Below, piece after piece: positions 18,332 to 23,836 of a DNA stretch of 35,442 nucleotides. Every line of letters starts with the position of its first letter. Position 1 is the stretch's first letter. The notes under the pieces are model-generated. The model did no database searches, had not been told where the DNA came from, and saw only the letters and a list, made by a program, of their open reading frames with translations. The DNA comes from Ruminococcus sp. (GTDB lineage: Bacteria; Bacillota; Clostridia; Oscillospirales; Acutalibacteraceae), in assembly GCA_017473955.1 (NCBI GenBank), contig JAFUIK010000053.1, positions 1-35,442 on the forward strand, written 5' to 3'. Position numbers and translations under genes: made by a program.

Positions 18332-20338
18332 ATGGATAAATATACAGGCAAAAAGCTTGATGGCCGATATGAGATAAGAGAGCTTATCGGCGTTGGCGGT
18401 ATGGCTAATGTTTACCATTGTTATGATACAATTGATGATAGAGAGGTTGCTATCAAGATTTTAAAGGACGAGTTTTTAGATAACGAGGATTTTATCCGCA
18501 GATTTAAAAACGAGTCTAAAGCAATCGCTGTGCTTAATCACCCTAACATTGTACGAGTATACGATGTTAGCTTTGGCGATATGATTCAGTACATCGTTAT
18601 GGAGTATATCGATGGCATTACGCTCAAAGAGTATATTGAGATGCAGGGTGTTCTTGACTGGAAAGAAACACTGCATTTAACAACACAGATTTTAAAAGCT
18701 TTACAGCATGCTCACGAAAACGGCATTGTTCATCGTGATATAAAACCACAGAACATTATGTTGTTACAGGATGGTACTATTAAAGTTACTGACTTTGGTA
18801 TTGCTCGTTTTTCCTCAAATGCTACAAGAACAATGACAGAGCAGGCTATCGGCTCAGTGCATTATATCGCACCAGAGCAGGCTAGAGGCGACAAAACTGA
18901 CGGCAAGACAGATATTTATTCTGTTGGCGTTATGATGTACGAGATGCTAACAGGTCAGTTACCGTTTGATGGTGATTCTGCAGTTTCTGTAGCTCTTATG
19001 CAGTTACAGACAACAGCAAAGCGTCCTCGTCAGGTCAATCCTGATATTCCTTCAGGTCTTGAAGAAATCACAATCAAAGCTATGCAAAAAACTCCTGACA
19101 GTAGATACCACTCTGCTGTTGAGATGCTTTCTGACATTGAGCGTTTCAGGCTTAACCCAAGCATCAGCTTTGAATACAAATATTTTGAGGAAAAAGCAGG
19201 CTACAGTGATGCTGTTAAAAAGTCTAAGAAAACTCAAGAGCCTGAAAACTATGGAGATAATCACGAATATTATGATGATTCTCCTGTTAAGTCGCCGGTT
19301 CTTTCTGCTATCAAGGGTGTAATTATCGCTGCTGTTATTGCTTTGCTCATATTTGGAGGTATGGCTTTATACACAGGTTATACTTCTTCTCAGCCTAAGG
19401 AAGAAGTTGTTCCTGATTTTGTTGGTCTTACTATCGCTGAAGCTAATACACTTAACAATGGTCGTTTTGTGTTCACATATGAAAGCAGATACAGCGATGA
19501 GTTTGATGTTGATACAATCATTTATCAGACTCCTGAAGCTAATTCTAAGAAGATTAAAGAGGGCTCAACTATCAATTTAGTTGTCAATTCAGCTGATTCC
19601 GAGGTTGCTGTTCCTTATGTTGGTGTCAGCGGCGATGTCAATGCTACTGTTGAAAAGCTAAAACAGGTAAACCTTGTGCCACAAATTTTATATATCAATT
19701 CTGATAAGGAAGAGCAATCAGTAGATAGTCTGTTCCCACCAATTGGTACAAAAGTTCCTATCGGTTCAACTGTATATGTTATGGTTTCTAAAGGACCATC
19801 TTATGAAGGCATCGAAATGCCTGATATAAAAGGTCTTTCATTATCAGAAGCTCAGGCTCTTCTTGAAGAGCTTGGTTTTGAGAACATAAAGGTTGCTTAT
19901 GATGAAAAGAGTAAAGAGGAAAAAGACGAAGTAATCAGACAGAATCCTGTAACAGGCAGTAAGATTAAGCCTGATTATAACATCGTTATCACTTGCTCAA
20001 AGGGTGAGAAGAAGGAGAAAGAAGCTACCATTTACGTTGATTTACCTTCCGGTGTAACTGGTGAAGTAGAGGTAACTGTGCTCGTAGATGGAGCAGTTGA
20101 TTCTACTTACAGTAAGACTGTAGTTCCTGCTTACAATTCTACTTATACTATAAAAGTTAAAGGTAAGGAAACGGTTACAGTGCTTATCCTTCTCGATGGA
20201 CAAGAATACCGTGAGTATTCCGTTAATTACGAAGAGGGTTATGTAACAACCGTACATTCATATGAGTATCAGGGAGCAGTAACAGAAACAACAGCACCGA
20301 CCGAAGCACCTACAGACGCTGTTGCTGAAGTGCAGTAA
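18332..20338 (+). CDS. prkC: PASTA-domain Ser/Thr protein kinase
   Basis: A 668-residue eukaryotic-like kinase. The cytoplasmic kinase domain (about 12-275) has the Gly loop GVGGMANVY (20-28), Lys42, HRDIKPQN (134-141), DFG (154-156) and APE (180-182), all catalytic residues present. A juxtamembrane linker (about 290-322) leads to one membrane helix (about 327-349). Three PASTA repeats follow outside (about 358-422, 424-490 and 495-560), which in this family bind muropeptides or lipid II. Beyond them is an extra beta-rich domain (about 565-650) and a Thr/Ala/Pro-rich tail ending TEAPTDAVAEVQ. Thr-rich activation loop residues (NATRTMTE, 163-170) are probable autophosphorylation sites. It starts 15 bases after prpC with GAGAGGAG, and is followed after one base by rsgA, a known substrate class of PrkC kinases. 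Confidence 0.96.
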   Translation: MDKYTGKKLDGRYEIRELIGVGGMANVYHCYDTIDDREVAIKILKDEFLDNEDFIRRFKNESKAIAVLNHPNIVRVYDVSFGDMIQYIVMEYIDGITLKEYIEMQGVLDWKETLHLTTQILKALQHAHENGIVHRDIKPQNIMLLQDGTIKVTDFGIARFSSNATRTMTEQAIGSVHYIAPEQARGDKTDGKTDIYSVGVMMYEMLTGQLPFDGDSAVSVALMQLQTTAKRPRQVNPDIPSGLEEITIKAMQKTPDSRYHSAVEMLSDIERFRLNPSISFEYKYFEEKAGYSDAVKKSKKTQEPENYGDNHEYYDDSPVKSPVLSAIKGVIIAAVIALLIFGGMALYTGYTSSQPKEEVVPDFVGLTIAEANTLNNGRFVFTYESRYSDEFDVDTIIYQTPEANSKKIKEGSTINLVVNSADSEVAVPYVGVSGDVNATVEKLKQVNLVPQILYINSDKEEQSVDSLFPPIGTKVPIGSTVYVMVSKGPSYEGIEMPDIKGLSLSEAQALLEELGFENIKVAYDEKSKEEKDEVIRQNPVTGSKIKPDYNIVITCSKGEKKEKEATIYVDLPSGVTGEVEVTVLVDGAVDSTYSKTVVPAYNSTYTIKVKGKETVTVLILLDGQEYREYSVNYEEGYVTTVHSYEYQGAVTETTAPTEAPTDAVAEVQ

Positions 20339-21254: not shown

Positions 21255-21330
<76 letters not shown>

Positions 21331-21357
21331 ACCCCGAGCAATTTGTTCGGGGTTTTG
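21331..21357 (+). terminator. terminator after tRNA-Ala
   Basis: Stem ACCCCGAGCA (21331-21340) with TGTTCGGGGT (21344-21353), one G-U pair, followed by TTTTG. It starts directly at the base after the tRNA CCA and ends the long operon. Confidence 0.85.
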
Positions 21358-21432
21358 TTATTGCTTTTTTACATTTTGTGATATTTATAATTCTTATTTA
21401 CAAAAATGTAATAGATAAATCAGTAGTGTATC

Positions 21433-21462
21433 TTGTAATAATTATATTTGATGTGCTATAAT
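21433..21462 (+). promoter_or_regulatory. sigmaA promoter with extended -10
   Basis: -35 TTGTAA (21433-21438), 18-bp spacer ending TGC, -10 TATAAT (21457-21462), about 44 bases before the pseudokinase ATG. It shows that this gene is transcribed separately from the prkC operon. Confidence 0.7.
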
Positions 21463-21505: not shown

Positions 21506-23128
21506 ATGCCTTTATGTATGGGTTGCCTTAATGAAATAAATAGCAGTAACAACGTTTGTGGTAATTGCGGTTTCGATAATGCTAAACCTCAGTCTGCTCC
21601 TTTTTTACCATACGGAACAGTTCTCAACAATAAGTATGTTGTAGCAAAAGATTTGGGAACAAACGGTGAGAGCACTCGTTATCTCGGTTATGACAAGACT
21701 ACAGGTAAGGTTATAGTTATCCGTGAGTTTTTACCTATCGGATTATTTGACAGAGTGCAGGATGAAAAGGAGATATCCGTTCTACCTGAAGCTATCAATA
21801 ACTATAGTGTAGCTCTTGCTGATTTCGAGGACTATTATAATAAAATTAAATCTCTTTCTGACTTATCTGCTGTTGTAGTAATTGAGGATATCTTCAGAGA
21901 AAATAACACATGTTATGTAATCGAAGAAAGTGATGATAATATACCTTTTACCGAGTATGTTAAGAAAAACGGTGGTCATTTAGAATGGGATACAGCTAGA
22001 CCATTGTTTATGCCGATTATTTCTCTCCTTGAAGCCTTGCATAAAAATGGTATCGGTCATTATGCTGTGTCACCATCCAACTTGTCTGTTAACGCTGAGG
22101 GCAAGCTTATATTATCAGGCTTTTCTACTGAAAACGAGCGTAAACGCGGTACTATGCTTAAGTCTCAGTTGTTCAGTGGTTGTGCTGCACCCGAGCAGTA
22201 TCGTAACGATAATGTTTTAGATGTTTCAACTGATATTTATGGATTTACTGCTACTCTGTTTTATGCACTCACAGGCAATCTGCCTGCTAATGCTAAAGAG
22301 AGAGAAAAGGATTCTCGTTTGCTAATCAGTACTAATACTGTTAAGCGTTTACCTCCACATGTTGTTACAACTCTGGCAAATGGTCTGCAGATGCGTAGAG
22401 ATGCTCGTATATCTGACTTTGAAGAATTGCGTTCCCAGCTTTCTGTAGCATCAACCGTACAGGCTATTCAGGAGGAGATTTCCCGTACTGCTAGTATGAC
22501 TCCAATCTATAAAGATGGCGAAAATAAATCCAATGTAAACGCAACAGCTGTTGGCATTGTTGCAACTATAGTTGCTTTGCTCTTATTCTCGGCTATCGGA
22601 CTATATTGGCTTTCAATCAATCCACTTCAGGGATTATTTAAAGACGAGACTGTAGCTCCGACTACTGTAGCCGCTACTGAAGGTTGGACAGGACCTGTTG
22701 TTGCTGATTATGTTGGTAAAACATACGAAGAGGTTGTTGCCGCTGTTGAAGCTGACGGCTCTATTACTCTTAAGGTTTCTGCTGACGGTGAATATAGCGA
22801 CACAGTACCGCAGGGAACAGTTATCTCACAGACTCCTTCTGCAGGTGAGCCTATTACATCAGGCTCCTCGCTTATATACGTTGTATTGAGTAAAGGTCCT
22901 GAAATGAAGAAGCTACCTGAAGTTGAAGGCAAAACACTCACCGAAGCTTCTAAGGAGCTTATTGAACTTGGATACATTGTTCTTCAGGAAGCCGAGTACA
23001 GTGGCAATTATGCTGAAGGTGTAGTAATGGGTTATGTTAACCTTTCTCCGGGAGATTCTGTTGAATCGGGTTCCGAAATTACTTTAAGAGTAAGCAAAGG
23101 TACAGAGATTACTGACGAAGACGAATAA
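21506..23128 (+). CDS. zinc-ribbon, kinase-like (probable pseudokinase), PASTA membrane protein
   Basis: A 540-residue protein. Order: zinc ribbon (Cys4, Cys7, Cys18, Cys21 in CMGC and CGNC); kinase-like domain (about 37-315); membrane helix (about 345-367); Thr/Pro-rich linker; and two PASTA repeats (about 397-463 and 468-530) ending in an acidic tail. The kinase fold is suggested by NKYVVAKDLGTNGESTRYLGYD, by the helix before the catalytic loop (LLEALHKNGIGH) and by a retained APE (228-230). Catalytic residues are missing: the ATP lysine position reads VIVIREF (Arg73), HRDxKPxN reads HYAVSPSN (185-192), and DFG is replaced by SGF (204-206). It should therefore not transfer phosphate in the usual way. 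A GGGGGAATAATA stretch precedes the ATG. It lies just downstream of the prpC-prkC-rsgA block. A role as receptor or scaffold sensing cell wall fragments is inference. Confidence 0.88.
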   Translation: MPLCMGCLNEINSSNNVCGNCGFDNAKPQSAPFLPYGTVLNNKYVVAKDLGTNGESTRYLGYDKTTGKVIVIREFLPIGLFDRVQDEKEISVLPEAINNYSVALADFEDYYNKIKSLSDLSAVVVIEDIFRENNTCYVIEESDDNIPFTEYVKKNGGHLEWDTARPLFMPIISLLEALHKNGIGHYAVSPSNLSVNAEGKLILSGFSTENERKRGTMLKSQLFSGCAAPEQYRNDNVLDVSTDIYGFTATLFYALTGNLPANAKEREKDSRLLISTNTVKRLPPHVVTTLANGLQMRRDARISDFEELRSQLSVASTVQAIQEEISRTASMTPIYKDGENKSNVNATAVGIVATIVALLLFSAIGLYWLSINPLQGLFKDETVAPTTVAATEGWTGPVVADYVGKTYEEVVAAVEADGSITLKVSADGEYSDTVPQGTVISQTPSAGEPITSGSSLIYVVLSKGPEMKKLPEVEGKTLTEASKELIELGYIVLQEAEYSGNYAEGVVMGYVNLSPGDSVESGSEITLRVSKGTEITDEDE

Positions 23129-23129
23129 A

Positions 23130-23158
23130 AAACAGGTGGGTTTATAGCCCACCTGTAC
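23130..23158. terminator. convergent terminator
   Basis: Stem ACAGGTGGG (23132-23140) with CCCACCTGT (23148-23156). The T run is strong on the minus strand (TTTTTTATT) and weak on the plus strand, so it mainly serves the XRE regulator but probably ends both genes. Confidence 0.8.
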
Positions 23159-23167
23159 TTATATAAT

Positions 23168-23836
23168 TTACTTTTTGAACTTCATATTACTTTCTGCATG
23201 TTGTATTAGGTTGAAAACAGAACTTGCGATTTGAGGATATTCCGATGCAATACTGTCGGGAGATATTTCGAGTTCAGCACATTGTTTTACAAAATCAATG
23301 TCGCACGACGGGTCTGTCGCACTAGTTACTCTTGTTGAAATTACCTGCATTGCAGCCGTTGAAAAACCTGAGTATACCTCTTTGTGTACTGCAAACATAT
23401 CCTGAGGATTATTTCTGTTTGCTGAATACACTTTCCTAAACATATTATATGTTGCCAGCATCAAGTAATTTGAAACATTGTTTGAAAGCTTGCGATTTCC
23501 GATTTTTATCAGGTAGTCATATAGTACACCTTGAGTGTTTTGTATTAGTTTTTTGTTAACAATCTGAGATACCGCATCACGCTTTGCTTTTGACACATCA
23601 TCGCTTATATCTGTAATATCGCTGTATCTCTGCGGTGTACGACCGAGCAGATAGTCACACGATACATCATAGTAATCTGCTATTTTTATCAGGAATTCCA
23701 ACCCACATTCTCTTATGCCTTTTTCATAGTGTGAGAGTAGTGCTTGAGAAACACCCAAGTCATTGGCCACTTGCTTTTGGCTTAACTTCTTTTCTTTTCT
23801 TAGCAGGGTTATTATTCTAGAAAAATCCTTATTCAT
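23168..23836 (-). CDS. XRE-family transcriptional regulator with C-terminal domain
   Basis: A 222-residue protein. The N-terminal Cro/CI-type helix-turn-helix (about 7-65) is clear: LSQKQVANDLGVSQALLSHYEKG (about 18-40), then LIKIADYYDVSCDYLLGRTPQ. After a linker, an all-helical C-terminal domain (about 85-222) of unknown family follows, possibly for dimerisation or ligand sensing. No membrane helix or metal motif is seen. It is transcribed divergently from the histidine phosphatase; a perfect palindrome overlies its own -35, consistent with autorepression. The start ATG 23836 follows AAAAAGGTGG. Regulated genes are unknown apart from this inference. Confidence 0.87.
   Translation of the reverse strand: MNKDFSRIITLLRKEKKLSQKQVANDLGVSQALLSHYEKGIRECGLEFLIKIADYYDVSCDYLLGRTPQRYSDITDISDDVSKAKRDAVSQIVNKKLIQNTQGVLYDYLIKIGNRKLSNNVSNYLMLATYNMFRKVYSANRNNPQDMFAVHKEVYSGFSTAAMQVISTRVTSATDPSCDIDFVKQCAELEISPDSIASEYPQIASSVFNLIQHAESNMKFKK

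What the first reader, a model, noticed from the sequence alone, without database searches (positions are those of the whole stretch)
21506..23128. Zinc-ribbon pseudokinase with two PASTA domains beside an active PASTA kinase
The protein has a Cys4 zinc ribbon, a kinase-like domain, a membrane helix and two PASTA repeats. The ATP lysine is replaced by Arg73, HRDxKPxN reads HYAVSPSN, and DFG is replaced by SGF, while APE and the fold-defining spacing remain. PASTA repeats of active kinases sense muropeptides or lipid II. A catalytically dead PASTA receptor with a cytoplasmic zinc ribbon, encoded next to prpC-prkC-rsgA but under its own extended -10 promoter, suggests a signalling scaffold or an inhibitor/activator that pairs with PrkC through mixed PASTA dimers (inference). 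Mycobacterial MviN shows that membrane pseudokinases can act as phosphorylation-dependent scaffolds, but that domain order is different.
Basis: partly seen in the sequence, partly recalled or inferred. Interest (0 to 1): 0.75.

Follow-up and report, generated by a model that had tools for sequence, protein, structure and literature searches.

The report
Conserved dead PASTA kinase, gut Ruminococcus
A gut Ruminococcus carries a membrane protein that looks like a bacterial cell-wall-sensing kinase but has lost the residues needed for catalysis; the same dead receptor is kept in nearly all sampled genomes of two related bacterial families, so it probably signals without being an enzyme.

Summary
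In detail: window 21506-23128 (+) encodes 540 aa with a Cys4 ribbon, a kinase fold, one membrane helix and two PASTA repeats, and the kinase site is dead. One correction: DFG aligns with G205-F206-S207, not SGF, so the DFG Phe is kept. It is not a one-off: of loci fetched by similarity alone, none keeps the HRD Asp (0 of 57, 79, 28 and 20). Of 161 distinct relatives none has the alpha-C Glu, 17 the beta-3 Lys, 11 the DFG Asp; HRD His, APE Glu and alpha-H Arg are in all 161. In an order-wide sample it occurs in 28 of 29 (plus a fragment) and 28 of 28 genomes of two families; one of 190 others gave a member. dN/dS against five close orthologues is 0.02-0.07. Linkage to prkC is real in this genus (rsgA upstream in 63 of 80 loci) but seen in 0 of 40 loci of other genera, which weakens the PrkC co-receptor idea. 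Best reading: an ATP-independent, wall-tethered signalling scaffold. The seven pseudokinase families of a 2025 review, as far as I read it, include none with PASTA. New variant of a known kind.

The parts
21506..23128 (+). PASTA pseudokinase gene, 540 aa
21515..21568 (+). Cys4 zinc ribbon, residues 4-21
   Evidence: C4, C7, C18, C21 invariant in 25 and 46 rows; zinc binding inferred
21617..22450 (+). kinase-like domain, residues 38-315
21722..21724 (+). Arg73 in place of the beta-3 Lys
22058..22081 (+). HYAVSPSN in place of HRDxKPxN; His185 kept, Asp lost (Ala187)
22118..22126 (+). Gly205-Phe206-Ser207 in place of DFG; Phe kept
22187..22195 (+). APE motif kept
22451..22540 (+). juxtamembrane stretch 316-345; Glu324 invariant in 25 rows
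   Evidence: low pLDDT
22541..22618 (+). single long helix, residues 346-371, taken as the membrane helix
   Evidence: membrane insertion inferred from its hydrophobic sequence
22697..22891 (+). PASTA repeat 1
22910..23098 (+). PASTA repeat 2
21454..21462 (+). extended -10 TGCTATAAT, with TTGTAA at 21433-21438
21398..21411 (.). inverted repeat TTACAAAAATGTAA, operator-like element
   Evidence: TNACAnnnnTGTAA within 220 nt in 74 of 79 genus loci, 0.25 expected in shuffles
21330..21354 (+). terminator-like hairpin after tRNA-Ala, between the prkC group and this gene
   Evidence: 4 such sites found, 1.8 expected; tRNA
23132..23156 (.). terminator-like hairpin between this gene and the convergent XRE gene
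18332..20338 (+). prkC, active-looking PASTA kinase (neighbour)
   Evidence: NF033483 540 bits, cut-off 450

Best explanation
It is a single-pass membrane receptor whose cytoplasmic kinase domain is catalytically dead, the local copy of a clade-wide family (zinc ribbon - pseudokinase - TM - PASTA). Shown by computation: architecture, loss of catalytic residues across the clade, kinase fold, single origin of the clade, retention in nearly all sampled genomes of two families, purifying selection in close orthologues. Inferred: the outer PASTA repeats bind peptidoglycan or lipid II and place the protein at sites of wall synthesis; the pseudokinase, which keeps the structural core (HRD His, DFG Phe, APE Glu and alpha-H Arg), acts as a binding platform that, with the zinc ribbon and juxtamembrane helix, recruits a cytosolic partner without using ATP. 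Wall state would be passed inward by where the protein sits and what it holds. PrkC may be a partner or may phosphorylate it, but nothing here shows that.
Against: No partner, ligand or localisation is known. Four members keep both Lys and DFG Asp, so nucleotide binding is possible in part of the clade; AlphaFold3 models in the 2025 review place ATP in other pseudokinases with beta-3 Arg (PMC12599244). PASTA ligand binding is inferred from the domain family only. dS is near saturation in the pairs used. The model is of moderate confidence (pTM 0.51).
Confidence: 0.5

Rival explanations
1. Allosteric partner of PrkC: the pseudokinase forms mixed dimers with PrkC and tunes its activity.
For: Near prpC-prkC-rsgA in this genus, 63 of 80 loci with rsgA upstream; both carry PASTA; only one other kinase, 234 aa, was found in this incomplete genome. 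A PknB heterodimer with a different membrane protein, AuxB, exists in S. aureus (PMC12505970, abstract). The careful tree does not reject a psk plus PrkC grouping.
Against: 0 of 40 loci in other genera have rlmN, prpC, prkC or rsgA nearby; a hairpin and a promoter-like site separate it from the operon.
Confidence: 0.25
2. Active enzyme in disguise: residual kinase activity or another reaction (AMPylation, glutamylation) as in SelO or SidJ.
For: Known for other pseudokinases (PMC12599244); 17 of 161 keep the beta-3 Lys and 11 the DFG Asp.
Against: The window protein lacks two of three Gly-loop glycines, the beta-3 Lys, the alpha-C Glu, the HRD Asp and the DFG Asp at once.
Confidence: 0.1
3. Wall anchor only: PASTA repeats and the membrane helix do the work and the kinase domain is an inert relic.
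For: PASTA functions separate from kinase activity in S. aureus PknB (passages).
Against: The kinase region is about as constrained as the whole gene (dN 0.038-0.126 against 0.036-0.145) and keeps core residues in all 161.
Confidence: 0.1

Closest known systems
PrkC/PknB/Stk1 PASTA kinases (NF033483)
   Same: N-terminal kinase fold, one TM helix, C-terminal PASTA repeats
   Different: Catalytic residues lost; N-terminal Cys4 ribbon; 115 bits against a cut-off of 450; separate clade
Zinc-ribbon kinases of Clostridia with beta-3 motif IKE[YF]xP (no formal name known to me)
   Same: Cys4 ribbon before the kinase domain, same beta-3 motif, mostly Ser in the catalytic loop; 11 distinct ones also carry PASTA by my HMM
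   Different: These keep beta-3 Lys and DFG Asp (73 of 73 with HRD)
PpkA (5hnv; Serratia T6SS kinase, recalled)
   Same: Best structural match, and best sequence match of the kinase region among solved chains
   Different: Active kinase with other domains (recalled)
MviN pseudokinase (ActPs3)
   Same: Membrane pseudokinase linked to peptidoglycan regulation
   Different: Pseudokinase at residues 710-942 of a larger transmembrane protein, mainly actinobacterial (PMC12599244); no PASTA (recalled)
DYD kinases
   Same: Membrane-associated, present in Firmicutes, beta-3 Lys to Arg, no alpha-C Glu
   Different: Described as keeping HRD and/or DFG-type motifs with a DYD signature (PMC12599244); here both Asp are gone

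Membership tests
Bacterial Ser/Thr pseudokinase | Loss of at least one of beta-3 Lys, HRD Asp, DFG Asp | tested here: met
   All three lost in the window protein; definition from PMC12599244
Bacterial Ser/Thr pseudokinase | Protein kinase fold | tested here: met
Bacterial Ser/Thr pseudokinase | No phosphotransfer activity | not testable with these tools
   needs an assay
Stk1-family PASTA kinase (NF033483) | Curated family score | tested here: not met
   115.1 bits, cut-off 450
Stk1-family PASTA kinase (NF033483) | Intact Lys, HRD Asp, DFG Asp | tested here: not met
Stk1-family PASTA kinase (NF033483) | TM helix and C-terminal PASTA | tested here: met
   outside location inferred
DYD pseudokinase family | HRD retained and DYD in place of DFG | tested here: not met
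   HYA and GFS; definition from PMC12599244
ActPs3 / MviN | Activation-loop deletion, often a TM region C-terminal to the pseudokinase, actinobacterial | tested here: inconclusive
   A TM helix follows the domain, but the host is Bacillota (named relatives) and PASTA is present; the family profile was not available

The most novel reading that the evidence does not exclude
A natural, family-wide kinase-dead PASTA receptor that arose once, replaced catalysis by ATP-free conformational or scaffold signalling from peptidoglycan, and became a near-universal component of wall control in two families of gut Clostridia, including the keystone starch degrader Ruminococcus bromii.
Probability: 0.4. Interest if true: 0.8.

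Novelty: new variant of a known kind. Interest (0 to 1): 0.6.

Why it matters
Whether PASTA domains act only by switching the attached kinase, or have work of their own, is open: recent S. aureus work argues that they do have such work (PMC12505970, abstract and passages). A clade in which evolution kept the PASTA receptor and discarded catalysis is a natural test of that, in gut bacteria. It would also be a PASTA-linked pseudokinase family beyond the seven of the 2025 review, with active zinc-ribbon kinases at hand for comparison.

Tried and rejected
Rejected: pseudogene. The frame is open in the window and in nearly all listed full-length relatives (exceptions: one in-frame TAA in matches of G320 and G353, and G117), and dN/dS is 0.02-0.07. 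Rejected: an alternative register with intact Lys or Asp (HMM alignment and relatives). Not shown: descent from within the zinc-ribbon kinases. The quick tree nests the clade among them (SH-aLRT 81-87); the careful 44-row tree makes the zinc-ribbon rows a group of their own (83/81, not starred) and so does not reject psk plus PrkC. Only 3 and 5 PrkC rows survived the identity filters in these trees.

Circularity to note: the 161 were picked as lacking HRD Asp and the 73 as having HRD, so those two columns are fixed by choice; the independent checks are the similarity-picked loci and the trees. Three zinc-ribbon sequences that also lost HRD Asp but lie outside the clade (loci L184, L225, L292) were left out of the 161.

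Regulon of the upstream palindrome: the loose motif TNACANNNNTGTNA occurs 60 times in the genome against 56 for the reversed control, so no regulon is visible. In other genera the strict motif was upstream in 4 of 40 loci. A similar repeat (13 hits with a 3-nt spacer, 2 with 4) precedes the XRE gene in 15 of 50 loci (1.0 expected), but it overlaps a -35-like hexamer, so an XRE-operator link is only a lead.

Not found in print: searches listed no paper on a PASTA pseudokinase of this kind; I saw only the top of long lists (20 of 47, 20 of 62, 15 of 7,116, 12 of 14), and searches found no paper for their terms. The library holds open-licence papers only; the 2019 pseudokinase paper PMC6997932 is not held. 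Of PMC12599244 I read parts 1-3 of 8 plus keyword passages; of PMC12505970 the abstract and passages; of PMC9674922 and PMC6213207 passages.

Rows dropped: one search used 56 of 58 loci (L024 cut by a contig end, L065 missed by the pattern); one search dropped 4 of 370 kinase ORFs for short coverage and collapsed the rest to 297 distinct. My PASTA HMM is weak: it misses repeats in 5 clade members whose tails look PASTA-like. One search counted 80 loci, one of which (L095) is a cut gene with no real upstream; the count is 74 of 79, and the motif was defined after seeing 9 of these. The 28-of-29 and 28-of-28 counts rest on best E-value per genome, counted by hand from the table; of the 28 second-family genomes I fetched 25, all lacking HRD Asp, and did not read 3. 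Of the other 190 genomes, kinase-only matches of four (G331, G312, G341, G435) were not fetched. The window's own genome is 83% complete.

The second structure job was not used.

Full report
What is there. The window is a 35.4-kb contig of a 1.6-Mb, 83% complete genome. Named relatives place it among Ruminococcus: a 94% identical orthologue is in Ruminococcus sp. RGIG4579, and R. bromii ATCC 27255 and YE282 carry orthologues at 51% and 53%. The ORF at 21506-23128 encodes 540 aa with a Cys4 ribbon, a kinase domain, one membrane helix and two PASTA repeats. Upstream are rlmN, prpC (Stp1-type phosphatase), prkC and rsgA, then a tRNA-Ala with a hairpin after it and an extended -10 (21454-21462).

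Catalysis. Aligned to the neighbouring PrkC, Lys42 becomes Arg73, HRD becomes HYA, DFG becomes GFS and APE is kept. Among loci fetched purely by similarity, HRD Asp is in 0 of 57, 0 of 79, 0 of 28 and 0 of 20; two loci with cut genes dropped; the sets overlap in part. From all fetched loci I took 370 kinase-like ORFs, kept 366, 297 distinct. 161 of these are the window protein's group. None has alpha-C Glu; 17 have the beta-3 Lys, 11 the DFG Asp, 4 both; HRD His, APE Glu and alpha-H Arg are in all 161; DFG Phe in 148. In 73 zinc-ribbon kinases with HRD, Lys and DFG Asp are in 73 of 73. The catalytic-loop Lys is already Ser in 59 of those 73, so that change is inherited. In a weighted comparison, positions fixed in the active kin but lost here are chiefly in the ATP site and catalytic loop, while many structural positions are shared. 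The window protein keeps the first Gly-loop glycine and has lost the other two.

Origin. The dead rows form one clade in both trees (SH-aLRT 100, 50 rows, none of 54 active zinc-ribbon rows inside; 100/99). It shares the ribbon and the beta-3 motif with active zinc-ribbon kinases; whether it is nested among them or beside them is unresolved, and a grouping with PrkC is not excluded. Eleven active zinc-ribbon kinases also carry PASTA-like repeats, up to seven by my rough HMM, so PASTA fusion is not confined to the dead branch. Some second-family members keep Lys and DFG Asp but have HRG, which suggests that the HRD Asp went first (inference).

Spread. In 247 genomes of the order, best matches at E 3.2e-101 or better occur in 28 of 29 genomes of the window's family (the 29th, G109, has a 160-aa fragment), and at 4.1e-60 or better in 28 of 28 of a second family. 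Of the other 190 genomes one (G276) gave a clade member; the other listed matches there were kinase-only or PrkC-type (loci read). In 343 genomes of the class no match spanning columns 1-538 was listed outside those two families (listing capped), and the kinase-only zinc-ribbon relatives fetched there nearly all keep HRD and DFG (L292 is an exception). Within the genus 59 of 60 genomes have some match, which counts other kinases too: the best in G057 is an active zinc-ribbon kinase. Whole-gene dN/dS against five close orthologues is 0.024-0.072, with synonymous sites near saturation.

Neighbourhood. rsgA lies upstream on the same strand in 63 of 80 genus loci, 10 more have under 6 kb upstream, 7 lack it. 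In R. bromii ATCC 27255 thiN and tRNA-Ala lie between, and groEL follows. In 40 loci of other genera none has rlmN, prpC, prkC or rsgA nearby; a yebC gene precedes in 9 (one of them named) and the XRE regulator is present in 7. The gene is not tied to prkC.

Regulation. A palindrome TNACAAAANTGTAA lies within 220 nt upstream in 74 of 79 genus loci, against 0.25 in shuffles, amid less conserved DNA. The strict motif is upstream in 4 of 40 loci of other genera. The binding protein is unknown.

Mechanism. I favour an ATP-independent wall-tethered scaffold (confidence 0.5): fold core kept, catalysis gone, constraint strong. The PrkC co-receptor idea is possible (0.25). Work on S. aureus PknB shows PASTA functions that do not need kinase activity and a PknB heterodimer with another membrane protein, AuxB (PMC12505970; abstract and passages). 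C. difficile authors could not exclude that their second kinase CD2148 is a pseudokinase (PMC9674922, passage).

Compared with what is known. The 2025 review lists ActPs1-3, GLW, CP1, DYD and DLHK (PMC12599244, parts 1-3); its text has 'PASTA' once, in a reference title, and 'zinc' never. None of the family descriptions I read matches; DLHK in detail lies in a part I did not read. I file this as a new variant of a known kind: a pseudokinase in a PASTA-receptor architecture.

Noticed in passing
window 21398-21411: Inverted repeat TTACAAAAATGTAA upstream of the gene; TNACAnnnnTGTAA in 74 of 79 genus loci versus 0.25 in shuffles. No regulon seen in the genome.
   Followed up: partly
window 23168-23836 (-): XRE-type regulator (RstR-like HTH, below that family's cut-off), convergent with the pseudokinase gene in 45 of 80 genus loci and present in 7 of 40 loci of other genera; a similar repeat precedes it in 15 of 50 loci.
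   Followed up: partly
L230, L232, L231, L217, L221: Active-looking zinc-ribbon kinases of 1,024-1,495 aa with up to seven PASTA-like repeats in the same order.
   Followed up: partly
L184, L225, L292: Three zinc-ribbon kinases outside the clade that also lost the HRD Asp: decay has probably happened more than once.
   Followed up: no
L192 1444-2148 (own genome, contig C45): A 234-aa kinase with HKD and DFD in place of HRD and DFG, the only other kinase found in this incomplete genome.
   Followed up: no
L193 1853-4162 (-): SpoVD/PBP2-like penicillin-binding protein with PASTA repeats next to mraY, the third PASTA protein found in the genome.
   Followed up: no
L204 (G320) and G353: Matches in these two second-family genomes run over one in-frame TAA.
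   Followed up: no
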